Of a DNA stretch of 64,000 bases, positions 1,045 through 64,000 are shown piece after piece. Source of the DNA: Sordaria brevicollis (lineage: Eukaryota; Ascomycota; Sordariomycetes; Sordariales; Sordariaceae); the NCBI GenBank assembly GCA_033439795.1, contig JAUTDP010000002.1, forward strand, positions 3,844,001 to 3,908,000. Direction: 5' to 3'. Made by a program: the position numbers and the translations under genes. Below the pieces are notes generated by a model. It did no database searches. It was not told the DNA's origin and saw nothing but the letters and a program-made list of their open reading frames with translations. The number at the start of each line of letters is the position of its first letter. Position 1 is the first letter of the stretch.

Positions 1045-4011
1045 CTTGTGTTGTTTTGTCGCTTTCTATTTTATTACTTGTCGTTTATGAGGTTTCAGTC
1101 CGTGAGAGAACCTGATATGGTTCGGTCCTCGATGTCTTTGCTGGCAGGTCCTAGAAAAACCTCCAGCCACTGGAATTTCCGTGATCAACTAATTAACAGT
1201 TTAGATCGATCTAAGGATGCAGGCTGTGATGTCCGTCAAAATTATTCTCGTTATTTCTTGGTTGGATAAAAGTGTTGGGAATCGCAATTAAATGGTGCAA
1301 TAGCTGAAACTGTGCTGATATGATACACAGTTGCTGTTGGGCCCAACAGGTCGTCGTGTCGTTCAAACTGTTATAGCCGGTGAGAGGAGGATGAAAGAGG
1401 TATCAGGATGGCAGGTCGTTCCCGTGAGATGAATATGTAGGATAAAAAGTAGGTGAGATGGTAGTAACAGATCGAAGTAAAGCCAAGAAGGAGAGAAAAC
1501 GGAGATAGTGAAGCCAACTACCGCCTTTTTCTTCCAGGTTTTTGCAGAAAGGAGACGAGGGCGGGGGATGACGGGGATCGGGGATGCTTACCCCGGGTTT
1601 AAAGTTTTTCACAAGAAATAGGAAGACGCCATCAGCTAACTAGTATTAGGTTAGGTTAGTTTCCCTTTCAATGATGGTCGATCGTGACATCCCAAGTGGG
1701 AATGGCATTATGGGACGACCGGGAGGTAAAGGTGGTGTATGGTGTGTGCCTGACTAGAGGTAACCATGACCGTTGACCCCATTTTTTTTTACAGGCAGAT
1801 GATTGATAATGCTTCTGTCAAGTTTCCCTTTTGGAGCTTTTTGGAGCTTTGTATTCCTCACACCGCATTTACACAGATACAAATTACCAATTCTGCAGAC
1901 GTTGGCAAGCTAAAAGACGTTAGGGAACCATGCTTCGCCGGGAATCTATTTTGCCAGCCAAGTCCCGGTTACTCCTCGCTTGGTCCATCCACTTGGCGCA
2001 GACAGTCATCACAGTCTGATGAACCGGTCGGGAGGAAATTGGGAATGTCAACAGGCAGAGTATGACGAAGCGTAGCAAAAAGAGAAGAAAGGGCCCAACC
2101 GCACCCACCACCGGCATCGTGCCGTCTGTTCAGTCCATCTCGGGAAGTGGCGGTCATTGTCATTGTCATTGAAGAAGGTTGGTTGTGTGTGCGCGGGCAG
2201 GTAATAACCCAACCATGCATTGATGTAATCGATTTACAAGGGGTCCTCCAAGATCAGCGGTTGGAACTTCCCAAAACTGTTAGAACGAAAAAGAAGAAGA
2301 AGTTGGAGAAGCGAAGCTCAGAAGAAGAAGAAGAAGAGCAGCCGACATCCGTAATCGGCTTTAGGGTTTTTGTGACCTCTCGCCTTGACATCGCTACATA
2401 GTAACCAGAAACAACACGCATTTCGGTTCTTTCTTTCAAGATGTTGGTGTTGTTGAAGCAGCCTTCCGGCATGTGGATGACAAGCAGAAGGAAGAGGATA
2501 GTTAGTTGGTATAGATAGGAGAGAAGCTCGGTCGGACGTTTCTGTTCTGTTCGGCTTTGCCGCCACCTTGCTCTCTGCTCTCACGCAATCATCATCCCAA
2601 AGAGGAAAAGGAGGCGACGACGGGGGGTTATTGTCGGATTGTTTGGCGCATAGCTGGATTCTAGAAGAAAGGTGGCCGGGGAATTAAAAAGTATAGAACA
2701 CAGTGATGAATGGCTGCGGACAGTATCACAGGTGTCATGTGCTCAATACTTACTATAGCACAGTTACAAGCGGCTTCAAACGGCGGCTTGTACCAGTTAA
2801 CCAGCTATCAACTATTACCGTACTGTAAGCGATGATAATGGTCCAATTGTATAGGTAAGCGGCGACAGATATCTTTTGTCCGGTATTAAACTTGACTTTG
2901 ATCCTTTCGGTCCGTATGTAGTCATCTAAAGAGCAGAAAAAGAAGAAAGGTTGATGATGTGAGGTCAGATATGAGAAACCATTATACGAAACATTTGTAA
3001 CGGGCGGGACGAAACTCGGCATTGCAGTGGGACAGAACCTACAGCATGCATTACGTACAGCGAGCGGCATGATAGACATGCAATGGACGCAGAGATCGTT
3101 GGTTCAAGTCAGCTCTTCAAATTGAACTTGGTGCAGCATGTCGAATCGATCGAAAGAAAGCGAAGATTGGAAATATTCCGTTCGTTAGTTTGCTCGTCTT
3201 TACCAGAGGTGATTGACACATTAAATGGGAAAACGTGCTGCGAGTGTTGTAAGTGCTTGTATAATCCTTCGCTTGCAGGTGCCGAAGCTTTGGTGCAACT
3301 CAATGCGGGGAATATTAGCTCCGGCGGTATCCCCGAGGCGTTGAATGGCCGGAACGGGAGAAGAGGGGCCGAGCGAGCGGTGGGCGATGGGCGGGCGCCG
3401 GTTCGAAGTGGAGGAGGGGTTGGACTTCAGTGATTGGAGAGCTTGAAAGAGGGGAATGTTAGATCAAAAGCTGAAAGAATTCCAAAGTTGGTGGTTGCTG
3501 AACACTTGAAGGGATGTTGGATGCGAGTTGGGAAAGACGGAATACTATCTATACTCGTTAGTCTAGTTGGTATAATATCGACCATTTATATAAAAGGCCC
3601 TTGACGAGTAAAGGTGGAAGGAAATGTTAAAAGAGTTTCTGGAACTCGAAGCTGCCATTATCTCTTCTCAACGCCAATAGCCTTTTAAGATCTGGAATTC
3701 TTGAACAGCAGTCAACTTCACAAGCACCACGAAATATCATCCGAATATTGTCGTATAAATTGACGTCGGTAGTTCCGTCCCGTCTGGTATAAGACCAGAG
3801 TCGTACATTGAGTTAACGTTTTTGCCAAGTATTGCTCTTGTCCCGTCTCAATATCAACCCGCAGTATAATGCACATCACTGCCCACATGGCATCGGGAAC
3901 CTCCACGGTCGGATGATAGCAAAAAGGGGATATACGATATAAAGTAAATAATGATCGAAGATATAAAAAAAAAATAAAAAAAAAATAAAAAAAAAAAACC
4001 TCTCCAAAAAG
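1045..4011. other. Intergenic region, no convincing gene
   Basis: About 3 kb without a supported gene. The open frames here are short, overlap on both strands and have no recognisable motif. It holds the promoter side of the MFS gene, pyrimidine-rich stretches, a GAA/AGA-rich microsatellite near 2,287-2,338, and an A-rich run at about 3,960-4,000, which is the T-rich downstream region of the 5S gene on the minus strand. Confidence 0.6.
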
Positions 4012-4130
4012 ATATACAACAATAGGGATTCGCTGGTCGTCACCGACCCAACTACTAGTCTGGCCCTCACTGGCTTATTTATGGGAGAGCGGACGGGATC
4101 CCGAGTTTTCCAGTGGGTATGGTCGTATGT
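4012..4130 (-). rRNA. 5S rRNA gene, dispersed copy 1
   Basis: The minus strand from 4130 reads ACATACGACCATACCCACTG and continues through the internal control region AGTTGGGTCGGTGACGACC followed by AGCGAATCCC, the pattern of fungal 5S rRNA. Length is 119 nt. It is nearly identical to the plus-strand copy at 15,525; I see changes only at one internal base and in the last ~12 nt. The 3' end reads GTTGTATAT instead of GTTGTATGT, which breaks one pair of the terminal stem. A T5 run at 4006-4010 can terminate Pol III. The TATA-like box expected near -29 is weak (TGATAG around 4,155), so this copy may be poorly expressed or a pseudogene. Single dispersed 5S genes, not a tandem array, are typical of Neurospora. 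Confidence 0.88.
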
Positions 4131-15524: not shown

Positions 15525-15643
15525 ACATACGACCATACCCACTGGAAAACTCGGGATCCCGTCCGCTCTCCCATAGATAAGCCAGTGAGGGCCAGACTAG
15601 TAGTTGGGTCGGTGACGACCAGCGAATCCCTGGTGTTGTATGT
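15525..15643 (+). rRNA. 5S rRNA gene, dispersed copy 2
   Basis: 119 nt beginning ACATACGACCATACCCACTG and ending GGTGTTGTATGT. The first and last ~9 bases pair (ACATACGAC with GTTGTATGT) as the closing helix of 5S rRNA. The internal control region reads AGTTGGGTCGGTGACGACC followed by AGCGAATCCC. A T6 run directly after the end (CTTTTTTG) is a Pol III terminator, and a second T-rich run follows. The upstream TATA box is good, so this copy looks functional. It is the same 5S type as the copy at 4,012-4,130, in inverted orientation 11.4 kb away. Confidence 0.95.
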
Positions 15644-15837
15644 CTTTTTTGTATGTCTTTTGTTTTTTTCTCTCTTGCCTTCGGGCCGCCAACATCTAGG
15701 CCATTTCTTCACCTTTTTCCTTCCGTATAACGTGTTGGGCCGTTTGGCGTAGAAACTTTGGCTGTTCAAGGTGCTCAGGATTCAAATTAACAAACCATAC
15801 ATGTGTTTTTTTAACCATCCGCTCTGATCAGGTCAAG

Positions 15838-41900: not shown

Positions 41901-42056
41901 ACTGGTTCAAATGTAGGTTCGGATCGCAACGTCACCCGTTCGAATCTCATCCGAAGTCAAACTTCCTTCAGTTTTTCTTCAACTCCCAAAGCTATGGGAG
42001 AGCTGTCCGGGCAAGTCCTGGGTACTCTCCCATGGTGAGCAAACTCGCCATAGCGA
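38907..42056. other. Intergenic region upstream of HMG-CoA synthase, no confident gene
   Basis: 3.1 kb. The first ~150 bp are GA-rich on the plus strand (CT-rich on the mRNA strand), fitting a promoter and leader for the HMG-CoA synthase gene. Frames of up to 185 codons (40,551-41,108 plus) overlap opposite-strand frames and have no motif. A TATATAAAGG-like motif lies at about 39,651. Confidence 0.45.
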
Positions 42057-42308
42057 ACAACAGCGAAAACAACACCAGCGAAAAACATCAGCGAAAACAA
42101 CACCAGCGAAAACAACACCAGCGAAAACAACACCAGCGAAAACAACACCAGCGAAAACAACACCAGCGAAAACAACACCAGCGAAAACAACACCAGCGAA
42201 AAACACCAGCGAAAACAATACCAGCGAAAACAACACCAGCGAAAACAACACCAGCGAAAACAACACCAGCGAAAACAACACCAGCGAAAACAACACCAGC
42301 GAAAACGG
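42057..42308. repeat. 15-bp tandem minisatellite
   Basis: About 16-17 head-to-tail copies of the 15-mer AACAACACCAGCGAA. Most copies are perfect; a few are shortened by 2 bp (GCGAAAAACACC) or differ by one base (AATACC). Because 15 is a multiple of 3, all frames stay open and produce repetitive phantom proteins on both strands. No gene spans it. Confidence 0.9.
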
Positions 42309-46329: not shown

Positions 46330-48330
46330 CCTCTCCTAAACCCGTTTTTAGCGGCAAATTCTAATAAATATAGGGTCATAATTTTCGGTTCAAAAACCGG
46401 ATTTCAGGAGCCTATTCGTATATACAAATTTCTAGAAAATTATAAAAATGAAACTTTTCTTAGGAATCTCGTAATATTAATATTTAAAGTAAATAAAAGG
46501 TTATATTTATTATTATAATCGATTATTTCCTTTATCCTTTTATTTATACCCGCTTTATTTTCTTCTCTTATTGTAATTCCCTTATTTTCCATACTAAAAT
46601 GAGTTAGGAATTGATTGGAAGCGAATTCTAAACCTTAAATTCTTAAATTTAATCGTTTTCGTTAAATTCCTAAATAAATTAATTAAACTAATTTACTTTT
46701 ACCCAACCTAATTAACCTAATTAAATAATTAATCGTAATAAAAGTAAAGGTAAAAAGGCTTCGACGATAATTTTAAATAAAAAGAAGAATTGGATATAAA
46801 TTCTAATATAAAAAATCCATTTCCTAATTAAATTCGGGAAAGCTATCGAAAGTAATTTAATTAATTAGAATAGGTATAAAGAATAAATATATATTAAATT
46901 CATTAATAGTATACGTAACGAATTCGGCATTATTCCTAATAATTAATAAATACGTAATAAAATTGATTATTTAAGGAAGAAATAGCGCGTTTAATATATT
47001 TTTAAATCGTTATTTAAATTCGATTTCGATCCTAATACTAATATACTAACTATAAAGGATAACGTTTAGGAACGGATAATTAAGGTTAATATATTATATT
47101 AATATAAATATAATATAAGTAAATTAATTAAATATAATAAGCCTATAAAGAGGTTAGCTAATTTCGTAAATAGGGTCTCCCGTATTGTAAATTTATAAAG
47201 TAGGTTTTTATTAATAATTAGGGAATTATTAGGGAATATACGGTAATTTTGGGCTAATTATTATCGATTAAAGAAATATAATAAGTAAATCCCCTATTAA
47301 ATTTATTAACCGACGAGAATAATAAGGATATACCTATCCCCGCTTATATAAAGGATAATAATTTAAAGAAGTCGGCTATTAATAATTAAAATCTTAAAAA
47401 GAAAAAGAGGAAGAGTAATAGTGAAATTATTATAGAGAATTTGAAAAATTTAACGACTACGTTATTAAAGGAGGATAACGACTACGACCGTAATTATATC
47501 GAGAAGGTAATTATCGAAGAGAAAAAGGCGGGGGGGGAGTAATTAAATAAGGCGTTCGATATTTTTAATTGGAATTAGGAGGAGAAGGTCGATAACGACG
47601 TTACTAAAGCTATTTTTATTAAGTAGTAATTTTCTAAAATTAAAATTAATATATTTATAAGGATATTATAAAAAAAAAGGGAATATTATTTTAAAAAGGT
47701 AAAGAGAAAAATTAAAAAGGAGAAGGATAAAAGAGAGGTAGGATTTAAACTTTTATTAAATTTATTAATCGACCCTACCCTATAATAATATTGAAAGAGC
47801 GCTATATTTTAACGTTATTAGCGGGGTAATTTAATAATTTATATAAAAACGGGAGCGGGATATAGGGCGACCCCGGATTTTTTTTATCTTATCGATTTAA
47901 TATATTTTTTCAATACCTTTATATTACCACCAAAAAAAATTATATATATATAAAAAATATACCATTATAATCGCTAAATTGAATTAAATCGATATATTTA
48001 ATTATTATTAATTTTAATAAAATTTTATAGGCAATATAAATATTAAAAATAGTATTACGATTTTAATTTATACGGTATAGCGGGAGTTAAAACCGCGCTA
48101 GTATAATTTAATATATTAAATTTATTTATTTAAAATCTAAAATATTTTGAAATCGAAGGTATAAAATTCTAATATTTATATTCGGTTGTTTATATTCTAG
48201 TACTTTAATATTTTAATATATACTTTAGATTATTATTTAAATTATTATTTATATTATTATTTAGATTATTATTTAAATTATTATTATTTTAATAAATTTA
48301 ATCGATTTAAGAAGTAATTTAAGTATATAA
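46330..48330. repeat. RIP-mutated AT-rich DNA of unknown origin
   Basis: 2 kb with very high A+T, almost no CpA or TpG, and frequent stops in all six frames. CpG is retained. This is the pattern of repeat-induced point mutation, so the sequence was once repeated. A stretch at about 47,350-47,760 has Lys/Glu/Asp-like codon remnants, but I cannot assign an element type. It is flanked on the right by the 5' LTR of element 1. Confidence 0.75.
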
Positions 48331-48616
48331 TATCACAGGATTATACCTATGCTATACCCGGTATACGCACTAACCACCTATATAAGTGCCCAAATCCCTA
48401 ACGACCATTCCCGACTATAGTACGCATACTATAACTCAATATAATCTAAATTTAATTACTTATAATTACGTATAGTATCACGTAGGTACGCACGGATTAG
48501 GGTATAAACTCGCGCCTATATATCTAATCCTCCGTATATACTTCTCCCTTCCCTTCCTTCGTATAATAATATATATTTTATTATATACTTAACGGTATTA
48601 ACGCTATCCTTTAATA
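48331..48616 (+). repeat. 5' LTR of element 1
   Basis: 286 bp, starting TATCACAGG (ancestral TG with RIP change) and ending CCTTTAATA (ancestral CA). It aligns along its whole length with the two LTRs of element 2 in the opposite orientation; the differences I read are C/T or G/A. Confidence 0.88.
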
Positions 48617-50388: not shown

Positions 50389-50674
50389 TATTAAGGGACA
50401 GCGTTGGCACCGTTAGGTATATAATAAGATATATGTTATTGTACGAAGGAAGGGAAGGGAGAAGTATATACGGAGGACTGGATATATGGGCGCGAGCCCA
50501 TACCCTAATCCATACGTACCCACGTAATACTGCACGTGACTATAAGTAATTAAATCTGGACTATATCGAACTATAATATATATACTATAATCGGGAATAA
50601 TCGCTAAAAATCTAAATACCTATATAGGTGGTTAGTACGTATACCGGGTATAGTATAAATATAATCCTATAATA
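50389..50674 (-). repeat. 3' LTR of element 2
   Basis: 286 bp. On the minus strand it begins TATTATAGG (from TGTTATAGG) and ends CCCTTAATA. It is the least RIP-changed of the three LTR copies at its outer end (GACAGCGTTGGCACCG kept on the plus strand). Confidence 0.88.
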
Positions 50675-50690: not shown

Positions 50691-53600
50691 GAAATTCGTA
50701 GAGTTAAAAAAATTTATATATACGTATAATTATAATTTAAAATCCTTTATTAATTTATTAAATACTTTTAACTATAACGTTAATTATATCCTAGACTATT
50801 TATCTATTAAAAATCGTACAATCTTCGTTATTACCTCTATAAATCCCTCTTCTACCTCCTTCTTAATTAATAATAATTCCGTTTTAGAGATAACGAATCG
50901 TTATATTAAGCGGGTAAAATAACGGCGTAAAGCGCAGGGTTCGGTATTAGCATTAAATTATTCGTTGCAAATAACGGGGTCCGTTATCGGGTATTTTCCT
51001 TCTTATTTAAAGTAATCGAAAAATTCCTTAACGTAGGGCGGTATTAATTTATCGGAATAGTCGTAATAAAATTCTTAAAGATGTACTTTATAATCGATAA
51101 CGTTATTAACCTTTTCCTAAGTAGGGTCGTAATCGCCCTTCTATTTAATTAAATAATATTAATAACGGTTTTTTCCTTTTTATTTAATATTTAATAATTT
51201 ATTAAATCCTTATTTAATATATTCCTCGTAATCGTCGGTACGAATTATAATTCTACCCTCGTTAGCGCGGACGTCGGAATCGACGATTTAGCCGGAGAAA
51301 CTTTAACCGATTTAACGTTAAATTATCGAAATATAGAAAATTAGCAAGCATTTTATATTATTAGGTAATTGTAATTTAATAATATATAAGTCCGCTTTTA
51401 AAATTTTAAATAGTCCTTCTTAGCGGGGGAAGAATTTAATATATAGGCGACCGCTAATTAAATTAAACGTATCGAATAGAACGGTATCCCCTTCCTTATA
51501 TTTTACTAAATCAACCCACTTCTTATTAGCGTTTTTTTCGTACCGGTCTTAATTACGTTTAATTTATTAAATTACGAAGTCCTAAATTTTACGGAAATAA
51601 TCGGCGAATTCGTTAGCCTTATAGTATTTTTTTAATTATATAGGTAATAACGTTAGCGGTAGGGGGTTACGAAATTTAATACTTATACGGGGGTAATAAT
51701 TATAATTGGCGAAGAAAGGTAATAAGCCTATTAACGAGGATATTGCGTTATTACCGGCGAATTTTATAAAAGGAAATTATTTAGCCTAATCGGTTTATAT
51801 TTAATTAATATATAATCGGAAGTATTATTCTATTTTTACGTTAATATATTTAGTTTAAATATTTATTTAAAGGTAGAAAATAGAGGTTAAAGTGCGTTTA
51901 ATACCTAAACGTTAATATAAGGAGGATTAAAATTATAATACAAATTAAATACCTTTATCCGAAAGGACGGAATTTAAAAAGCTGTAAAGGTAATAAATAT
52001 AATCGATAAAACGTTCGGCTAATTTTTTTATTAATAGCGTAATTATTAGTATAAAGTATTATATTTTTATTAATTAATTAACGACGACGTAAATGTATTT
52101 AAATTCTTAATTAAAGTAAAAATTACCGGGGAGTAGAATAATATAATCGATAGAAATATAAATTTAAGGAGCTAATACAACGGGTAAGGTTTTAAAAAGG
52201 TTAATAGAACCATATTTAAAGAATTTAATCTTTATATAAAGTAAATAGGCTTTATAGAATATATATATATTATTAGCTATACCCTTCTAATAGAATTTTT
52301 AAAATAGGAATTCGTAAATAGCGTTACGATTAGGGTAATTTATATTAAGCGAATTATATTAACGATTAATTAATTAGAATTAGAATTCCTTATTATAAAG
52401 GTCGATTATTATATAATTACGCTATTTAATAATATTATTAAGGGTAACTTAATATTCGCTAAAAGTTTTATAAAGGACTTTACGAATCGAAATTAATTAA
52501 TTATAATTATTTAAATTATTTAAAGCGGAGATTATTTTTTAAAGGAATACGGAATTTTCGTAATTATTTAAAATAATATTATTAATTAATTTATTTTTAT
52601 AATCGCTTATTAGGGAAAAGGAATAATAAAAGGTTGGGTTTTTTTCATCGAAGCAACCGTTTGCGAATTATAAAGGTTAGAAAAGGGTATATTAATAAGC
52701 GGCGAAACGTTCGTCTTCAATACCCGCGGGGATATTATTAGGCTTCCTATTAAGGGTATTAGGGCGTAAATTCTTTAATCCTAAAGTATATTGAATTTAA
52801 AAGTTAAAACGTAATAAGAATTACAATTAATATATATACTACTATATAAATTGCTTATTAATTATAAAGGTCTTCAAATTTTTATAATCCGTTAAAATAT
52901 CGAATAATTATTATACTCCTTTAAATTCGGGTTATTATTCCTCTAACGCTTTAATAATAATTAAGAGTTTTTTATTATAAACGTTATAATTATACTTTTA
53001 AATTATATATTTTACTAAAAAGTAAGCGATTAAATATAATACTCCGTCGTTACTATATTATAAAAATATACCCCCTATTACTTAATTAAATATATTTATT
53101 TCAATTATAATCTTTTTAATTTAATTATAAATCTTTAATATAAATTTAATTACGAAAGCTTTCTTTAATATATTAAAAGCGGATTAATAATAATTAGATT
53201 ATAATTATAATACATTTTTCTTTATTAATTTATATAACGGGGATATTATCGTCGAAAATACTTTAATAAAACGCCGGTAGAAGTTCGCGAAACCGAAGAA
53301 TTACTAAAGCGATTTCTTAAATTAAAAGGGCGTTTAATCGAATACAACTTTAACTTTATTTAAATCCATTTTAATACCGCTTAATATAATAATTAAACCG
53401 AAGTATTTTGTACGTTTCGTATAGAATTTACATTTATTAATATTTACGCTTAAACCGGCTTTAATTAAACGTTCGAAAATATCGTTAATATATTATTCGT
53501 AATCCTTCTCGTTATTAAAATATATAAAAATATTATCGAAATAAGCGGTCGCGTAAACGTCGAAAATATTATATAAAATATCGTTAATATAATTCTAAAA

Positions 53601-56600
53601 AGCGCCGAAGGCGCTTTAAAAGCTAAAAAGTATAACCAAGGATTCGAATAGCCTAAACTTTATTATAAACGCGGTTAGCTATTCGTAATTTTCCTTAATA
53701 CAGACCCGGTTAAAAGTAATAATAATATCTAATTTAATAAAAATTTTAACGTAATAAATAGCGTTGAATATTTCTTTAATAAATGGGAGTAAGTAGCGGA
53801 ACTTAAGGGTAATATTATTAATACTTCGGTAATTAATATAAACGTAGACTCCTCCTCCCGGCTTTTTAATTAAAAATATAAGAATAGAAATTTTTAATTA
53901 TAATAGCCGGATAAATTTCTTTTTTAAATTATCGTCGATTTATTTTTTAATAACGTTAAATTCTTTTGGGTTAAAAGTACGATTACGGAAAGCGGATAAT
54001 ATAACGCTAAATTTGAATTCGAATTTAAAATCGTAAGACCGGTTAGGGGGTAGTATATTAACGCTTTCCTAACGGAAATTACTCGTCTATTACTAATATT
54101 ACTAAAGTAATTTTTATTAAATTTGAACGTCGGTCTTTAAGGGTTTATTTACCTTTTCGTAGAATTTAATAATATTTTTAAATATAATTTTATTAATATT
54201 AATATTATTAGCAGTAAAATAATAATTAATAATCTCTTTACAAATTTAAAAATCGGAAGTATCGCCTATAAATATAATTAAAGCGGAGATTTTAATTGCT
54301 TTAATAATTTCTTTATTTCTAATACTATAAAATATATCGATTTAAATATAATAATTACTACCGAAGAACTTTTTATAATAAATTGCTTTACCGTTTATAA
54401 TATTTTTAATTATATTAACCGTAAAATTATTACTAATTACATTCGGGGTTAAAACGTTTTTTTCTTTTATTATTTTATCTTCGTCTATTATACGTTAAAT
54501 ATCTTTTATTATATTCGCCCTTATTATATAAATAATTTAAAGCTTATATTTTTCGGCGAATTAATTAAATATAGCTATTAAGAGCTCTTTAATATTAATT
54601 AGGTCGAAAGGTCCTTTAAAAATATAATAAAAGCGGATTAATATTCGATAATCGGGGAAAGAAATATATACTCCTCCGGCTAAACGATATAATATAGGGA
54701 TTATATATAATAGAAGAAGGGGGTAATAACGTATTATAACTATTAATATAAGAATTTAATTACTAATAATTTTATTAATAAAGATTACGCCTATTTTATT
54801 AACGACCCTTTACTTAAATTTATTAAAACGGTAATAAGCGGCGTATTTAACGATCGCGGAAATAGAAATCTAACGAACAGCTTCTAATAATAAGGCGGGG
54901 GTATCTAATTCTCTTTTATTAAAGACGTTTAAAACGGAAGGTTTCTAATATATTAATCGCATCCTAAAGGAATTCCTAAAAGTAATAATAGAAGGTATAC
55001 TACTAAGAATAATAATTAAAAGCGTATCGACGTTATATTTACGTAATAACGGTACGTAATATAAATAACGGAATATTCCTAAGGGAAAGTAATTACGTTA
55101 TTTATAAGTAGAACTAAAAATAAAGCGATCGTTAAATTAATTAATATTAAGGGCGTAATAAATTAATTACAAATATCCGAAAATAACGGGGTTATCCTTT
55201 ATAAAATCGTAAATAAAAAAATCGATAAATTCGTAATATACGCTAATATTTATAATTAAACGACTAAAATACGTAATATTCCCCTTCGTTTAATTATTAA
55301 CGAGGTATAAGAATTTGGGGAATTAGAATTTAAAAATTAAAAGATTATTATATAAAACGAAACGACGGTTAATAAACCCTAGGGTAATATAACCACTATT
55401 AACGAATATAGTATAATATATTTTACGTAATCTATAAAATAAATAAATAGAAAGATTTAATAAATTGGGGTATTTATAACGGCTATTTATAAAAGATTTA
55501 TTAATCTTAATAATTTCAAATTTAACTATAAGGATACTCCTTAATTATCCTCCTCCTTATTTATATTTAATAAATATTAGCCTCTAATTACAATTTAAAC
55601 GGGAAATTATATATTTCCTTAACTATTAATAAAACCGTTCTTATTATTTATAACCGGGCCTACGAAGCCGTAAGGGTATATAAAGGTAAAGTAGTAAATA
55701 AATTACTATTACAATATAAAATAACCGGGAACCGGAGTATTAAGAACGGGAATACCTATAACGTTAACATTATAATAATTATATTAACCGTATCTATATT
55801 AACCCTAGGCAGGGCGCTATTATTAATTACCGTTATTATTATTATTTTTTTCCTTTTCCTTTTTATCCTTTTTCTCTTTCTTCTCCTTTTCTCTCTCTTT
55901 ACGTAATTTATATTTAAGTACTTCCTTTTTAAATTAAATACGACCTTTATATTTAATAAAGAAATAGCCTTTATAATTATAGCGGGTATAAGTACTAATT
56001 TTTATATAATATTAAAATATATCGTTATTAATTATACAGGAAATTTAAACGTCGGAGGCGGATATAAAATCGAAATCTATAGCAGTACCGCCCTCGTTAA
56101 TAATAAATTCGGGAATAGAACCGCTCGTATTACTAAAGGCGGAACTAGAGCCGGTAATAGGGTTATTAATATTAGATTTATAATAAGGGTTAGCGATTTT
56201 ATTATATTAATTCTTTTATTCGAATTATTTAGCGAAATTATAGGTTATTTCGAATTATTCGTTAAATTTATTATCCTTAGGTTAGGGGCGCTATAAAGCG
56301 ATAACGTTACGAAAGCGTTCGGTTAAGCGTTAACGGAAGTAATAGATCTTTATATTATTATTAAATTAATAACGTTCGATAATAATAACGAATTTATCTT
56401 CGAAATTAAATTATTTTATTTTACCCATTTTTAGGTCCTCGAATTTATAACGAATTTGAACTATAATATCGACGTTATTATATTTATTAATTATTTACTT
56501 AAATAAATCGAAAGTAATAGACTATTTAACCGGTTTATTAAATAGAATTTTAATAAATTTAAGTTCGATTACCTTTTAAAATTTACCGCGAAGGGAGTGG

Positions 56601-57781: not shown

Positions 57782-58067
57782 TATTAAAGGATAGCGTTAG
57801 CACCGTTAAATATATAATAAGATATATATTATTATACGAAGGAAAAGAAGGGAGAAATATATATAAAGGATTAGATATATAGGCGCGAGCCCATACCCTA
57901 ATCCGTACGCACTTACGTAATACTACACGTAATTATAAGTGACTAGATTTGGACTATATCGAGCTATAATATACGTACTATAGTCGGGAATAGTCGCTAG
58001 AGATTTGGGCACCTATACAGGTAGTTAGTACGTATACCGGGTATAGCACAGGTATAATCCTATAACA
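57782..58067 (-). repeat. 5' LTR of element 2
   Basis: 286 bp. On the minus strand it begins TGTTATAGGATTATACC, keeping the canonical TG, and ends CCTTTAATA. Confidence 0.88.
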
Positions 58068-58072
58068 GTATT
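58068..58072. repeat. Right target-site duplication of element 2 (GTATT)
   Basis: Partner of ATATT at 50,384-50,388; it differs only by G to A, a RIP-type change. Confidence 0.75.
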
Positions 58073-60307
58073 TTAATATTGTATAAAAATTAATATTTAT
58101 ATTTATTATAATTATAAAGGTTATTTTTTTATCGAATATAAGGGTCGTATTTAATTTAAGAAGGAGGTACTTAAGTATAAATTATATAGAGAAAAAGAAA
58201 AGGAAAAAAAAGAAAAGAAAAATAAAAAAGAAAAGGAGAAAAATAATAATAATAACGGTAATTAGTAATAGCGCCCCGCTTAAGGCTAATACGAATACGG
58301 TTAATATAATTATTATAATATTAACGTTATAAATATTCTTATTCTTAATACTCCGGCTCCTAATTATTTTATATTATAATAATAACCTATTTATTACTTT
58401 ACCCTTATATACTTTTACGGCTTCGTAAGCCTAATTATAAATAATGAGAACGGTTTTATTAATAATTAAGGAAATATATAGCCTCCCGTTTAAATTGTAA
58501 TTAGAGGCTAACGTTTATTAAATATAAATAAAGAGGAGGATAATCAAAGAATATCCCTATAATTAAATTTAAAATTATTAAAATTAATAAATTTTTTATA
58601 AATAGCCGTTATAAATACCCTAATTTATTAAATCTTTCTATTTATTTATTTTATAAATTGTATAAAATATATTATATTATATTTATTAATAGCGGTTATA
58701 CCGCCTTAGGGTTTATTAACCGTTATTTCGTTTTATATAATAATTTCTTAATTTTTAAATTTTAATTCCCTAAATTCTTGCACTTCGTTAATAATAAAAC
58801 GAAGGGGAATATTACGCATTTTAATCGTTTAATTATAAATACCGGTATATATTACGAATTTATCGATTTCTTTATTTACGACCTTATAAAGGATAACCCT
58901 ATTATTTTCGGATATTTATAATTAATTTATTACGCCCCTAATATCAATTAGCTTAGCGATTACTTTATCTTCGGCTTTGCTTATAAATAACGTAATTACT
59001 TTCCCTTAGGAATATTCTAGTATTTATATTATATATTATTATTATATAAATATAACGTTAATACGCCCTTAATTATTATTCCTAATAATATACCTTCCGC
59101 TATTACTTTTAAGAATTCTTTTAGGACGCAATTAATATATTAAAAACCCTCTATTTTAAACGTTTTTAATAAAAGAGAACCAGATACCCCCGTTTTACCG
59201 TTAGAGGCCGTTTACCGGATTTTTATTTCTACGATCGTTAAACGCACTATTTATTAACGTTTTAATAAATTTAAATAGAGGGTTACTAATAAAATAAATA
59301 CAATCCTTATTAATAAAATTATTAGTAATTAAATTCTTATATTAATAATTATAATACGTTATTACCCCTTTCCTTTATTACGTATAATCTCCGTATTATA
59401 TTACTTAATTAAAAGAGTATATACTTCTTTCTCTAATTATCGAACGTTAGTCCGCCTTTATTATATTTTTAAAGGACCCTTCGATTTAATTAATATTAAG
59501 GAATTCCTAATAATTATATTTAATTAATTCGTTAAGAAATATAAATTTTAAATTATTTATATAATAAGGGCGAATATAATAAAAAATATTTAACGTATAA
59601 TGGACGAAGATAAAGTAATAGAAAAAAAAGGCGCTTTAGCCCCGAACGCAATTAATAATAACTTTACGGTTAATATAATTAAAAATATTATAGACGGTAA
59701 AATAATTTATTATAAAAAATTCTTCGGTAATAATTATTATATTTAGATCGATATATTTTATAATATTAGAAGTAAAGAAATTATTAAAGTAATTAAAATT
59801 TCCGCTTTAATTATACTTATAAACGATATTTCCGATTTCTAAATTTACAAAGAAATTATTAACCGTTATTTTATTACTAATAATATTAATATTAATAAAA
59901 TTATATTTAAAAATATTATTAAATTTTATAAAAAAGTAGATAAACTTTTAAAGACCGACGTTTAAATTTAATAAAAATTACCTCAGTAATATTAATAATA
60001 GACGAATAATTTCCGTTAAAAAAACGTTAATACGTTACCCCCTAACCGGTTTTACGATTTTAAATTCGAATTTAAATTTGGTATTATATTACCCGCTTTT
60101 TATAATTATATTTTTAATTTAGAAGAATTTAACGTTATTAAAAAATAAATTAATAATAATTTAAAAAAGAAATTTATTCGGCCATCGCAATTAAAAGCCT
60201 CTATTCTTATATTCTTAATTAAGAAGCCGGGAAAAGGAATCCGCATTTATATTAATTATCGAAATATTAATAATATTATTTTTAAGTCCCGCTACCCGTT
60301 CCCGTTT
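58073..60307 (+). pseudogene. gag end, protease and early reverse-transcriptase relic of element 1
   Basis: Continuation of element 1 beyond element 2. It holds a Lys/Glu-rich stretch (~58,190-58,260), protease-region relic and the start of reverse transcriptase ending in ...TCCCGCTACCCGTTCCCGTTT, where the next insertion begins. Stops are frequent. Confidence 0.75.
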
Positions 60308-60321
60308 AAAATAGTAGTCCC

Positions 60322-60345
60322 TTGGGCGGAGCCGGATATGCCCAA
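60322..60345 (-). other. 3'-terminal hairpin of the Helentron-like element
   Basis: TTGGGC (60,322-60,327) pairs with GCCCAA (60,340-60,345) around a 12-nt loop, 13-14 bp from the element's 3' end. Rolling-circle transposons of this class carry such a terminator hairpin. Confidence 0.7.
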
Positions 60346-60354
60346 CGGAGACAA

Positions 60355-60367
60355 TGAAACGCCCATT
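60355..60367. repeat. Subterminal inverted repeat of the Helentron-like element
   Basis: TGAAACGCCCATT, perfect 13-bp inverse of 62,261-62,273, lying 46-47 bp inside the 3' end. Confidence 0.8.
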
Positions 60368-60539
60368 TCGTTTTTCCCTATATATTTAAAAGCTCTTGAA
60401 TTTTAAATATTTTATGAATTAAAATTTAACCTATTAAATTTCATGTGAAAGATATAATTCATTAATTCCTTTTTTAATTTTATATTAATTGCGTTATTTA
60501 CTTTCTTAGAAAAAGCTATATATATTAGTTAAATTTACT

Positions 60540-61110
60540 TATTCAATTATTTATCCATTTGTTTATTTATTTATTTATTTGTTTATTTATTAATTCATTT
60601 ATTTATTCATTTATTTATTCATTTATTTAATTTTCCATGTATTATTATACTTATAGATTTATGTATCTATTTATGTATTTAATTATTCATTTATTTATTC
60701 ATTTTTTTATTTATTTATTTATTTATTCATTTATTTACTAACCTATTTATTTATCTGTTTATTTGTTTATTTATTTATTAATACATTTATTTAACTATGC
60801 AATTTTTTATTTATTTATAAATGTATTTATATACTTATTTCTTAATTTATTTATTTATTTATTTATTTATTCATTCATTTACTTATTTTTATAATTTTTT
60901 TATTTATTTATTTGTTTATTTATTTATTTGGTTTTCTTTATTTGTTTATTTATTTATTTATTTGTTCATTTATTTATTTATTATTTATTTTCTTATTTAT
61001 TTTATAATTTTTTATTTTTTAATTTATATAGGTATTTATTCATTTATATATTGATTTATTTACTTACTAATTCAATTCTTCTTTAATTTCGCTATTTATT
61101 TATTTTTACC
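60540..61110. repeat. TTTA-rich microsatellite, part 1
   Basis: Imperfect tandem TTTA/TTCA/TTTG units on the plus strand (TTTATTTATTCATTTATT and similar). One open frame here reads as a Tyr/Leu/Phe-rich phantom protein. CpA and TpG occur freely, unlike the RIPed DNA on both sides. Confidence 0.85.
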
Positions 61111-61279
61111 CTTTTTTCTTTTATTCCTTCCTTTTTCCTTTCTTCTTTTATATCTTTTACCCCTTATATTATATTACTTGAAAACAATTCTTACTTTTTA
61201 AACTTTTCCTTTCTTTTTCTCTTTTTCTTTCTTTCCATTTCTTTTTCTTTTTCTCTCTCTTTCTCTCCTCTTCTACCTT

Positions 61280-61585
61280 AAATAATACTGTTTATTATTT
61301 ATTAATTATTGTTTATTATTTATTATTTATTATTTATTATTTATTATTTATTATTTATTATTTATTATTTATTATTTATAATTTATTATTTATTATTTAT
61401 TAATTATTAATTATTATTTATTAATTATTATTTATTAATTATTATTTATTAATTATTATTTATTATTTATTATTTATCATTTATTATTTATTATTTATTA
61501 TTTATTATTTATTATTTATTATTTTGTATTTATTATTTTATATTTATTATTTATTACTTATTATTCATTATTTATCATTTATTAA
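61280..61585. repeat. TTATTA microsatellite, part 2
   Basis: A second simple-sequence block of TTATTATTTA units (7-mer ATTTATT alternations), separated from the first by a C/T-rich stretch at 61,100-61,280. Confidence 0.85.
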
Positions 61586-61831
61586 ACGTTTTTATATAAC
61601 CTCCCCCCTCCCTTTTCCCACCCTTTCTAGATTTTTCCTCGATTTTTTTTCGATTTTTTTTTTCGAATTTTTTTCTTATACCTATCCGTCAAATTTTTTC
61701 AAAATCGTTTTTCTCCCTCAACAAGGGGTATAGAAATTTTCAAGGGGGTGCATCTTACTCGCCTTTTTCTCCTCTATATTTTAGTACCCCCTTTACCACC
61801 GGGGTTAGGGTTATAGGCTTTAGAAAACAAC

Positions 61832-62194
61832 TTAGCGATTTTTTTCTCTAAGTCCACTAACAATTTCCGGCCAGCGTTCCCGTACAACCGTACCAAACTC
61901 GATTTTTCCAAACTTCTTTCTCATTTTTCTCAACAACCGCTCGTCGGAATTTAATGCACCCGGCACCATTCTGTCCGGAATAATTAGACCAACACAATGG
62001 TACCCCTTTTGTGCCTGCGACGTTGAATCTGAAGGGTGTATCAACCTTTCAATCCGTTCCTCGAATTCAACTGAACTCAAATTACCCGTTTTGGTAGGAG
62101 GTGGGTCTAGGGGGCTCCGCAATTTCAGTAATTCGAACCGCGATAGACAGAAACGCCGCTCCTTCCCTCGGAAGTTTCGCTGCGACGGGCCCAT
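61832..62194 (-). CDS. 120-codon ORF inside the Helentron-like element, unknown
   Basis: Open frame of 120 codons starting 80 bp from the element's 5' end (MGPSQRNFRGKERRF...), with balanced composition, charged C-terminus (KMRKKFGKIEFGTVVRERW) and normal G+C. It sits in a block (~61,820-62,273) with free use of CpA/TpG and is the only intact frame of note in 17 kb. I recognise no Rep, helicase or host family. It may be a captured host gene fragment, an element-encoded small protein or chance; capture is well known for Helitrons. Confidence 0.35.
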   Translation of the reverse strand: MGPSQRNFRGKERRFCLSRFELLKLRSPLDPPPTKTGNLSSVEFEERIERLIHPSDSTSQAQKGYHCVGLIIPDRMVPGALNSDERLLRKMRKKFGKIEFGTVVRERWPEIVSGLREKNR

Positions 62195-62260
62195 AGCACG
62201 ACCTGCGGTATTTCAATCCATGGTTCGGGGCCCGGCGCAACTCTACCTCCAATGCGAAGG

Positions 62261-62273
62261 AATGGGCGTTTCA
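62261..62273. repeat. Terminal inverted repeat of the Helentron-like element (5' end)
   Basis: AATGGGCGTTTCA on the plus strand, ending exactly where the retrotransposon sequence resumes (ATTAAAGAAATATTCG). Confidence 0.8.
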
Positions 62274-62274
62274 A

Positions 62275-64000
62275 TTAAAGAAATATTCGATATTATTTAC
62301 CGTATTAAGATTTTTATTAAATTGGATATTATTAATACCTTTAACCGGGTTTATATTAAAGAAGGTTACAAATAATTAATTATATTTATAATAAAGTTTA
62401 AGCTATTCGAATCTTTAATTATACCTTTTGGCTTTTAGGGCGCTTTTGGCGCCTTTTAGAATTATATTAATAATATTTTATATAATATTTTCGACGTTTA
62501 CGCGACCGCTTATTTTGATAATATTTTTATATATTTTAATAATAAGAAGGATTACAAATAATATATTAATAACGTTTTCGAACGTTTAATTAAAGTTAAT
62601 TTAAATATAAATATCGATAAATATAAATTCTATACGAAATGTACGAAATACTTCGGTTTAATTATTATATTAAGCGGTATCGAAATAAATTTAAATAAAG
62701 TTAAAACCGTATTCGATTAAACGCCTTTTTAATTTAAAAAATCGCTTTAATAATTCTTCGGCTTTGCGAATTTCTACTGGCGTTTTATTAAAGTATTTTC
62801 GACGATAATATCTTTATTATATAAATTAATAAAGAAAAACGTATTATAATTATAGTCCGACCGTTATTAATCCGTTTTTAACGTATTAAAGAAGGCTTTC
62901 GCGACCGGACTTGTATTAAAGATTTACAATTGGATTAAAAAGATTATAGTCGAAATAAATATATTTAATTAAGTAATAGGGGGTATATTTTTATAATATA
63001 GCGACGATAGAATATTATATTTAATCGCTTACTTTTTAGTAAAATATATAACTTAGGAATATAATTACGATATTTATAATAAAGAATTCTTAATTATTAT
63101 TAAAGCGTTAGAAAAGTAATAATTCGAATTTAAAGGAGTATAATAATTATTTAATATTTTAATAGATTATAAAAATTTAAAGACCTTTATAATTAATAAA
63201 CAATTTATATAACGGTATATACGTTAATCGTAATTTTTATTACGTTTCAATTTTTAAATTTAATATACCCTAAGATCGAAGAATTTACGCCTTAATACCT
63301 TTAATAGGAAATTTAACGATATTTCTATAAGTATTAAAAATAAACGCTTCGCCGCCTATTAACGTACCCTTTTTTAGCCTTTATAGTTTATAAATAATTA
63401 CTTCGACGAAGAAAATTTAACCTCTTATTATTCCTTTTCTTTAATAAGCGATTACGAAAATAAATCGATCGACGATATTATCCTAAATAGTTACGAAAAT
63501 TCTATATTCCTTTAAGAAGTAATCTCCGCCCTAAACGATTTAAATAATTATAATTAATTAATTTCGATTCGTAAAATCCTTTATAAAATTTTTAACGAAT
63601 ATTAGGTTATTTTTAACGGTATTATTAAATAGCGCGACTATATAATAATCGACCTTTATAATAAAGAATTCTAATTTTAATTAATTAATCGCTAATATAA
63701 TTCGTTTAACGCAGGCTATTTTAATCGCAACGCTACTTACGAATTTTTATCCCGAGAATTTTATTAAGAAAATATAATTAACGATGTACATATATTCTAT
63801 AAAATTTACCTATTTTATATAAAGATTAAATTTTTTAAGCGTAATTTTACCAACCTCTTTAAAACCTTATTTATTACATTAATTCCCTAGATCCGTATTT
63901 CCATCGATTATATTACTCCGCTCCCTAATAATTTTTACCTTAATTAAGAATTTAAATATATTTACATTATTATTAACCGGTTAATAAAAATACGGTACTT
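62275..64000 (+). pseudogene. Reverse transcriptase, RNase H and integrase relic of element 1
   Basis: Reading through stops: reverse transcriptase core KLDIINTFNRV (~62,317), a PFGF box and YFDN at 62,511-62,522 (YxDD with the last D changed to N by a G-to-A change); RNase H (~62,930-63,200); the integrase zinc-finger region (~63,640-63,780) and the start of the integrase core with SIDYI (~63,900). Order and motifs are Ty3/gypsy. The window ends inside the integrase core. Confidence 0.82.

What the first reader, a model, noticed from the sequence alone, without database searches (positions are those of the whole stretch)
60308..62274. Non-RIPed Helentron/Helitron2-like element inside a RIPed retrotransposon
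The insertion site can be read to one base because element 2 preserves the uninterrupted target: nothing is duplicated. One end starts with a 13-bp sequence (TGAAACGCCCATT); its inverse copy is 46 bp inside the other end and is followed by a 6-bp-stem hairpin. The body is a microsatellite. This asymmetric layout is what is described for Helentrons/Helitron2 and DINE-1-like elements, not for TIR transposons or LTR elements. It keeps CpA and TpG while the host element has lost nearly all, so it either arrived after RIP or was never duplicated enough to be hit. A precise rolling-circle footprint in a RIP-active genome is unusual and could be a new family.
Basis: partly seen in the sequence, partly recalled or inferred. 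Interest (0 to 1): 0.82.

Follow-up and report, generated by a model that had tools for sequence, protein, structure and literature searches.

The report
Short Helitron2-type transposon in Sordaria
This is a short copy of a "rolling-circle" jumping element in a Sordaria fungus; it lacks the copying enzyme but shares its ends with dozens of other copies, one of which carries that enzyme's gene. It is a new family of a known kind, with a useful clue about how such elements survive the fungus's anti-repeat mutation system.

Summary
The layout is real. A 1,966-bp element (60,308-62,273, minus strand) begins TGAAACGCCCATT, carries the inverse of these 13 bp 47 bp inside its other end, then a hairpin, and ends ATTTT. 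Three uninterrupted paralogues of the host retrotransposon show insertion with no base gained or lost. The genome (Sordaria brevicollis, by an annotated protein and contig length) holds at least 39 copies of the 3' end; 23 complete copies were delimited. Twenty-two lack Rep-helicase (0.74-2.39 kb). One, 11,039 bp, carries an interrupted HUH-Y2 Rep and PIF1 helicase between the same ends. Ends and target (TNAT^W) match fungal Helitron2 elements described in Fusarium and Chaetomium (PMC5148889). "Non-RIPed" is only relatively right: the family is multicopy and lightly RIPed. One pair differs by 31 transitions and no transversions; another pair is identical over 818 columns. Six larger Rep-helicase copies are heavily RIPed, yet in the three measured directly the last ~180 bp are much less mutated. 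New member of a known kind; the RIP-sparing of ends is the most interesting by-product.

The parts
60308..62273 (-). non-autonomous Helitron2-type element, 1,966 bp (5' end at 62,273)
   Evidence: empty sites; ends shared genome-wide; no Rep-helicase match inside it
62261..62273 (-). 5' terminal half of the asymmetric inverted repeat, TGAAACGCCCATT
   Evidence: kept, up to the last C/T, in 22 of 23 full copies, which were delimited with a pattern allowing little else
60355..60367 (-). subterminal inverse copy AATGGGCGTTTCA, 47 bp from the 3' end
   Evidence: perfect 12-bp inverse in 21 of 23 full copies, at 47 bp (19) or 38 bp (2)
60322..60345 (-). 3' hairpin TTGGGC-12 nt-GCCCAA
   Evidence: perfect stem of 5-7 bp in 24 of 33 tails, including a different stem (TCCCTTA/TAAGGGA) in 2
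60308..60312 (-). 3' terminus ATTTT
   Evidence: 33 of 33 tails, picked with a pattern that demands it; also each of the 30 rows (25 places) of the BLAST listing made without that demand
61624..62273 (-). ~650-bp 5' core shared with the short copies
   Evidence: pairwise alignments; 22-copy alignment
60533..61584 (-). ATTT / TTTATTA microsatellite body of the long copies
   Evidence: lengths; alignments
58069..60307 (+). left part of the interrupted RIPed gypsy-type retrotransposon (interrupted in its reverse transcriptase)
   Evidence: family named from sequence reading, not from a profile search
62274..64000 (+). right part of the interrupted retrotransposon
52054..56019 (-). inverted paralogue of the host element with the uninterrupted target, junction 53,780|53,781

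Best explanation
A non-autonomous member of a new Helitron2-type (FoHeli1/2- and Chaetomium-like) rolling-circle transposon family in Sordaria brevicollis. Inferred mechanism: the Rep-helicase of an autonomous element nicks at the 5' TGAAACG terminus and unwinds one strand. The subterminal inverse repeat and hairpin mark where copying stops at ATTTT. The strand, probably through a circular intermediate, is joined into a TNAT^A/T site without duplicating it. Shown here: ends, target, empty sites, family, an autonomous-size copy with the same ends, and recent movement (an identical pair of copies). Inferred: that this enzyme acts on these copies, and the strand and circle steps.
For: At least 39 3' ends in one 53-Mb genome: 35, C21:13830, and C22:1427040, C5:902765 and C8:99944. 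34 matches to the 5' end region. 23 complete copies: 5' flank TNAT in 19 of 23 and T at -1 in 23 of 23; next base A in 14, T in 8, C in 1. Empty sites with no gap at the junction for 9 of 23 copies. For two copies further spans across the junction were found genome-wide; 36 of 40 scored rows have equal length in query and genome (junction places). An 11,039-bp copy, C27:1242456-1253494, has the same first 12 bp, 56 of 60 identical bases at the 3' end, PF14214 Rep (6.4e-20) and PIF1 helicase (4e-20); GHTH and NYVAKYISK are read by eye as the HUH and Y2 motifs. Closest described relatives have the same features. Copies C21:3085103 and C26:1490385 are identical over 818 aligned columns (30 gap columns) in different surroundings.
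Against: The autonomous-size copy is not intact: three TAG codons lie inside the Rep match, so the enzyme that moved the youngest copies may be another, unseen one or that of another strain. Of 35 rows in the Y2-region search only this copy lacks stops. No protein tree against reference Helitron1/Helitron2 sequences was made. The 3' hairpin is only moderately better than shuffles (z -1.64), and 9 of 33 tails lack a perfect stem of 5 bp or more. For 14 of 23 copies no empty site passed the filter in the DNA held, and the flanks of the 11-kb copy matched nothing. The constancy of the ends is partly built in, since copies were delimited by end patterns; the BLAST listing without them shows some variants at the 5' end (TCACACG, TAAAACG, TGAAACGCCTAT).
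Confidence: 0.93

Rival explanations
1. A TIR transposon or MITE that lost one outer end or its target duplication.
For: A 13-bp inverted repeat links the two ends.
Against: The asymmetry (0 bp against 47 or 38 bp) recurs in 21 of 23 copies by perfect 12-bp match, and the empty sites recovered for 9 copies show no gap at the junction. A Rep-helicase sits between the same ends.
Confidence: 0.02
2. A Helentron in the strict sense (Rep-helicase plus endonuclease) with DINE-1/HINE derivatives.
For: Same architecture: subterminal repeats, 3' hairpin, core plus microsatellite.
Against: No endonuclease domain in the 12 ORFs scanned of the autonomous-size copy; some of its ORFs were not scanned. The target is TNAT^W, not TT. 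No variation in the number of terminal Ts was seen, though the search pattern left little room for it.
Confidence: 0.04
3. A canonical Helitron1.
For: Rep and PIF1 helicase domains are common to all Helitrons.
Against: Canonical ends (5'-TC, 3'-CTRR, A^T target; definition read in PMC5148889) are absent; an asymmetric inverted repeat is present.
Confidence: 0.01

Closest known systems
Chaetomium globosum Helitrons neighbouring FoHeli1/2 (Chellapan et al. 2016, PMC5148889; abstract, sections 6 and 13, and passages read)
   Same: Asymmetric inverted repeat, 3' ATTTT, no 5' hairpin, insertion between TNAT and A. The protein search also returned Chaetomium globosum proteins (CHGG_02436, CHGG_03715); whether they are the paper's elements was not checked.
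   Different: Different terminal sequence in the window's family (TGAAACGCCCATY); next base also T in 8 of 23; many short copies without Rep-helicase, several with a microsatellite body.
FoHeli1 / FoHeli2 of Fusarium oxysporum (PMC5148889)
   Same: Helitron2-type ends, ATTTT, inverse repeat 38-51 bp from the 3' end, TNAT^A target, one-T ambiguity at the 5' end, no target duplication.
   Different: They start TCAG or T[c/a]AG with a 5' hairpin and are ~5-6 kb; here no 5' hairpin is seen (z +1.70) and the autonomous-size copy is 11 kb.
DINE-1 / HINE elements and Helentrons (Thomas et al. 2014, PMC4067079; passages read)
   Same: 13-bp subterminal repeats, 3' stem-loop, conserved core plus microsatellite, non-autonomous copies sharing ends with an autonomous partner.
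   Different: TT target and an endonuclease-bearing partner in Helentrons; neither found here.

Membership tests
Helitron2 (fungal FoHeli1/2-like) | asymmetric terminal inverted repeat | tested here: met
   perfect 12-bp inverse 47 or 38 bp inside the 3' end in 21 of 23 copies
Helitron2 (fungal FoHeli1/2-like) | 3' end ATTTT | tested here: met
   each of 30 rows (25 places) listed without an end pattern; 33 of 33 tails picked with one
Helitron2 (fungal FoHeli1/2-like) | insertion between TNAT and A, no target duplication | tested here: met
   TNAT 19 of 23; next base A 14, T 8, C 1; 9 of 23 copies with empty sites, no gap at the junction
Helitron2 (fungal FoHeli1/2-like) | hairpin near the 3' end | tested here: met
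   perfect stem of 5-7 bp in 24 of 33 tails, none that long in 9; z -1.64 for the window copy
Helitron2 (fungal FoHeli1/2-like) | hairpin at the 5' end (FoHeli1/2; absent in the Chaetomium relatives) | tested here: not met
   window copy: 195 of 200 shuffles fold as well; this is the Chaetomium state
Helitron2 (fungal FoHeli1/2-like) | autonomous copy with Rep (HUH-Y2) and PIF1 helicase between the same ends | tested here: met
   C27:1242456-1253494; the reading frame has TAG interruptions
Helitron2 (fungal FoHeli1/2-like) | protein groups with Helitron2 in a tree | not tested
   no reference set of both types was at hand; named fungal hits are Fusarium and Chaetomium proteins
Helentron (strict) | endonuclease domain | tested here: not met
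   none in the 12 ORFs scanned, not all ORFs of the copy
Helentron (strict) | TT target dinucleotide | tested here: not met
   target T^A in 14, T^T in 8, T^C in 1 of 23
Canonical Helitron1 | 5'-TC, 3'-CTRR, A^T target | tested here: not met
   5'-TG, 3'-ATTTT
TIR transposon / MITE | symmetric ends and target duplication | tested here: not met

The most novel reading that the evidence does not exclude
RIP cannot sterilise this transposon. Its mutation load falls off over the last ~180 bp of the repeat, exactly where the transposition signals lie, so RIP-killed copies keep working ends. If the 5' end is spared alike (not measured), copies under 1 kb lie nearly half inside the spared zones. RIP also makes new TNAT landing sites in the retrotransposons it destroys. 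The family would thus live on RIP wreckage, driven by rare surviving Rep-helicase genes.
Probability: 0.3. Interest if true: 0.6.

Novelty: new member of a known kind. Interest (0 to 1): 0.4.

Why it matters
It gives a well-delimited Helitron2 family in a relative of Neurospora, where RIP genetics is best understood: short non-autonomous copies, one largely readable autonomous-size copy, RIP-dead larger copies, and precise empty sites. The gradient of RIP toward the end of a dispersed repeat, measured against a little-mutated relative, bears on how RIP recognises homology and on how short elements persist in RIP-active genomes.

Tried and rejected
Rejected: TIR/MITE, canonical Helitron1 and strict Helentron (see rivals). 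Tested and not supported: that RIP load depends on how similar the nearest copy is (Spearman 0.23, p 0.31, 22 copies). Considered as an artefact: that intact 3' ends in RIPed copies only reflect a search with an intact end. A RIP-tolerant 35-base pattern gave 27 matches with 0 for the reversed control; in the 13 printed sequences I saw no heavily RIPed end. 14 were not printed, and ends with other changes would be missed. Local alignment of joined flanks with loose settings gave mostly low-complexity matches; only matches of at least 74% identity, 120 columns and 40 bases on each side were kept. The Rfam and tRNA scans of the window gave nothing in the element. Solved structures: the helicase piece matches PIF1 helicases and Helraiser (7lcc), not informative on type. 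Paper searches: no paper held all of 'Sordaria brevicollis', 'transposable element', 'genome'; searches listed no Sordaria Helitron paper by title. Nothing wider is claimed about print. PMC7296669: passages seen, not used.

Full report
What is in the window. The element occupies 60,308-62,273 on the minus strand. Read 5' to 3' it starts TGAAACGCCCATT. It has a ~650-bp core, about 1.05 kb of ATTT/TTTATTA microsatellite, the inverse AATGGGCGTTTCA ending 47 bp from the 3' end, a TTGGGC/GCCCAA hairpin, and CTATTTT. It interrupts a gypsy-type retrotransposon (my reading of the reverse transcriptase) that is 22-24% G+C. In that host (CA+TG)/(AC+GT) is 0.19 on both sides, against 0.95 in the element and 1.19 in window bases 1-46,000.

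Insertion. Three uninterrupted paralogues align ungapped over 300 columns to the joined flanks, one of them the inverted copy in the window. A single T can be given to either element or host. This is the same ambiguity that Chellapan et al. describe for FoHeli1/2 (PMC5148889, section 6 read).

The family. The genome G000 (53.1 Mb, 27 contigs) was searched with both ends. All 35 left-end matches start at the predicted terminal base. Of 34 right-end matches 26 start at the terminal base. Three more 3' ends came from the fetched loci (C22:1427040, C5:902765, C8:99944) and one from a pattern search (C21:13830), so at least 39. Twenty-three copies were delimited end to end with end patterns: 22 without a Rep-helicase match, 744-2,386 bp, and one of 11,039 bp. 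Ten more 3' ends had no 5' end matching the pattern in the DNA held; one of them, C14:216450, has a variant 5' end (TAAAACG). The short copies (744-848 bp) have no room for the microsatellite; the longer ones align over it at about 70-85% identity. 5' flanks are TNAT in 19 of 23 and have T at -1 in 23 of 23, against a TNAT frequency of 6% in the flanks at large. For 9 of 23 copies a paralogous empty site with no gap at the junction was found. In an ungapped comparison the last 60 bases are identical between the window copy and five others, 56 of 60 agree with the 11-kb copy, and 30-31 of 60 in two copies, which have the inverse repeat 38 bp from the end and a different 7-bp stem in place of the usual one. 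That the hairpin is rebuilt with other letters argues that it matters; against it, 9 of 33 tails have no perfect stem of 5 bp or more.

The autonomous-size copy. C27:1242456-1253494 has the same ends. Its ORFs match Helitron_like_N (6.4e-20) and PIF1 (4e-20). By eye the Rep part holds EFQARGTGHTHSIYW and NYVAKYISK, which I read, from recalled knowledge, as the HUH and two-tyrosine motifs. Twelve of its ORFs were scanned and none matched an endonuclease. The Rep match contains three TAG codons, so the copy is interrupted. A search with the joined ORF pieces gave 108 proteins; eight, among them a Fusarium pseudoanthophilum protein, are 34-39% identical over 98-100% of the query. Chaetomium globosum hits are CHGG_02436 (52% over 20%) and CHGG_03715 (32% over 97%). 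An S. brevicollis protein (B0T20DRAFT_481244) lies on a contig of 3,329,525 bases, exactly the length of C27, and aligns in pieces along this very element. I take G000 to be Sordaria brevicollis on that ground. In a search with another window gene no listed hit bears that name; the best named one, 88% identical, is from Neurospora tetraspora, and the best of all, 95%, is unnamed.

RIP. Against the majority sequence of 22 non-autonomous copies, C>T changes occur in 102 of 572 cells before A and 58 of 484 before T, but only 39 of 924 before C and 88 of 2,024 before G. G>A changes occur in 136 of 858 after T and 157 of 1,100 after A, but 67 of 2,024 after C and 39 of 968 after G. So the family has been touched by RIP, lightly. 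Copies C23:430938 and C5:1485962 differ at 31 of 771 columns, all transitions, 22 at CpA/TpG. Copies C21:3085103 and C26:1490385 differ at none of 818 columns, apart from 30 gap columns, so movement is recent. [quoted passage not shown]

Larger copies are another matter. Six loci with a family 3' end, but with no 5' end within the DNA held, carry Rep-helicase remnants upstream. Their last 4.6 kb are 23-27% G+C with a substrate index of 0.21-0.30, against 0.93 in C27. In the Y2-region search 34 of 35 rows contain stops; the weaker rows (27-36% identity) are probably other Helitron families. Yet the last 60 bp of the six keep 10.0 CA+TG per 100 bases, the next two 60-bp bins 7.2 and 7.5, then at most 3.3 out to 1.2 kb, while the six bins just outside have 2.5-3.6. 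One of the six flanks, at C5:1777963, is visibly not RIPed. Measured against C27 on three copies of its subfamily, conversion of CpA sites is 6 of 21, 9 of 21 and 10 of 21 in the last three 60-bp bins, 12 of 15 in the fourth and 0.80-0.91 beyond. My sums of those figures are 25 of 63 inside 180 bp and 1,164 of 1,373 beyond. Against a strong reading: the copies were found through their ends; only three copies enter the direct measure; C27 is assumed to stand for the ancestor; the last 60 bp also have no transversions (0 of 180), so they may simply be conserved; and in the non-autonomous copies the bin at -120 to -61 has only 0.8 CA+TG per 100, so no such zone can be read there. Some ~290-bp repeats of the window that look like LTRs also keep CA/TG, so this may be a general edge effect and not a property of Helitrons. 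A Neurospora experiment notes a stretch of ~130 bp at one end of a repeat that escapes RIP with one construct and not with another (PMC4858203, passages read).

Landing sites. At C23:430938 the filled site reads AATTAT where three empty paralogues read GGTCGT or GGTCGC. At C21:2117003 it reads TTAT where two empty paralogues read TTGT. The differences are of RIP type, so RIP may have made these targets before insertion, though later mutation is not excluded. In the window copy the three empty paralogues already read TAAT, so it says nothing on this.

Verdict. This is a new family of fungal Helitron2 elements with larger Rep-helicase relatives present, and RIP has touched it lightly rather than not at all. 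RIP on fungal Helitrons is itself already described, in Fusarium solani (PMC5148889, section 13 read).

Noticed in passing
C1:2026151, C1:2837270, C22:415864, C1:2795492, C5:1777963, C3:1779865 (3' ends; L040, L042, L041, L046, L043, L039): RIP-dead Rep-helicase copies whose last ~180 bp are much less RIPed than the body; five of the six flanks look RIPed too.
   Followed up: partly
C21:3085103-3085920 and C26:1490385-1491232: Two non-autonomous copies identical over 818 aligned columns (30 gap columns) at different sites: recent transposition with no RIP-type difference between them.
   Followed up: yes
C23:430938 and C21:2117003 insertion sites: The TNAT target in the filled copy differs from the empty paralogues by RIP-type changes, as if RIP had created the landing site.
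   Followed up: partly
C21:3199463-3212369: A family 5' end and 3' end in the same orientation 12.9 kb apart with no Helitron_like_N match between them: nested insertions or captured cargo.
   Followed up: no
window 15525-15644 (+) and 4011-4130 (-): Two dispersed 5S rRNA genes or pseudogenes.
   Followed up: no
window 48301-48500, 50401-50600, 57901-58100: Parts of ~290-bp repeats that look like LTRs of the RIPed retrotransposons keep more CA/TG than their surroundings.
   Followed up: no
window 42056-42306: A 15-bp tandem repeat, 17 copies, 94% matches.
   Followed up: no
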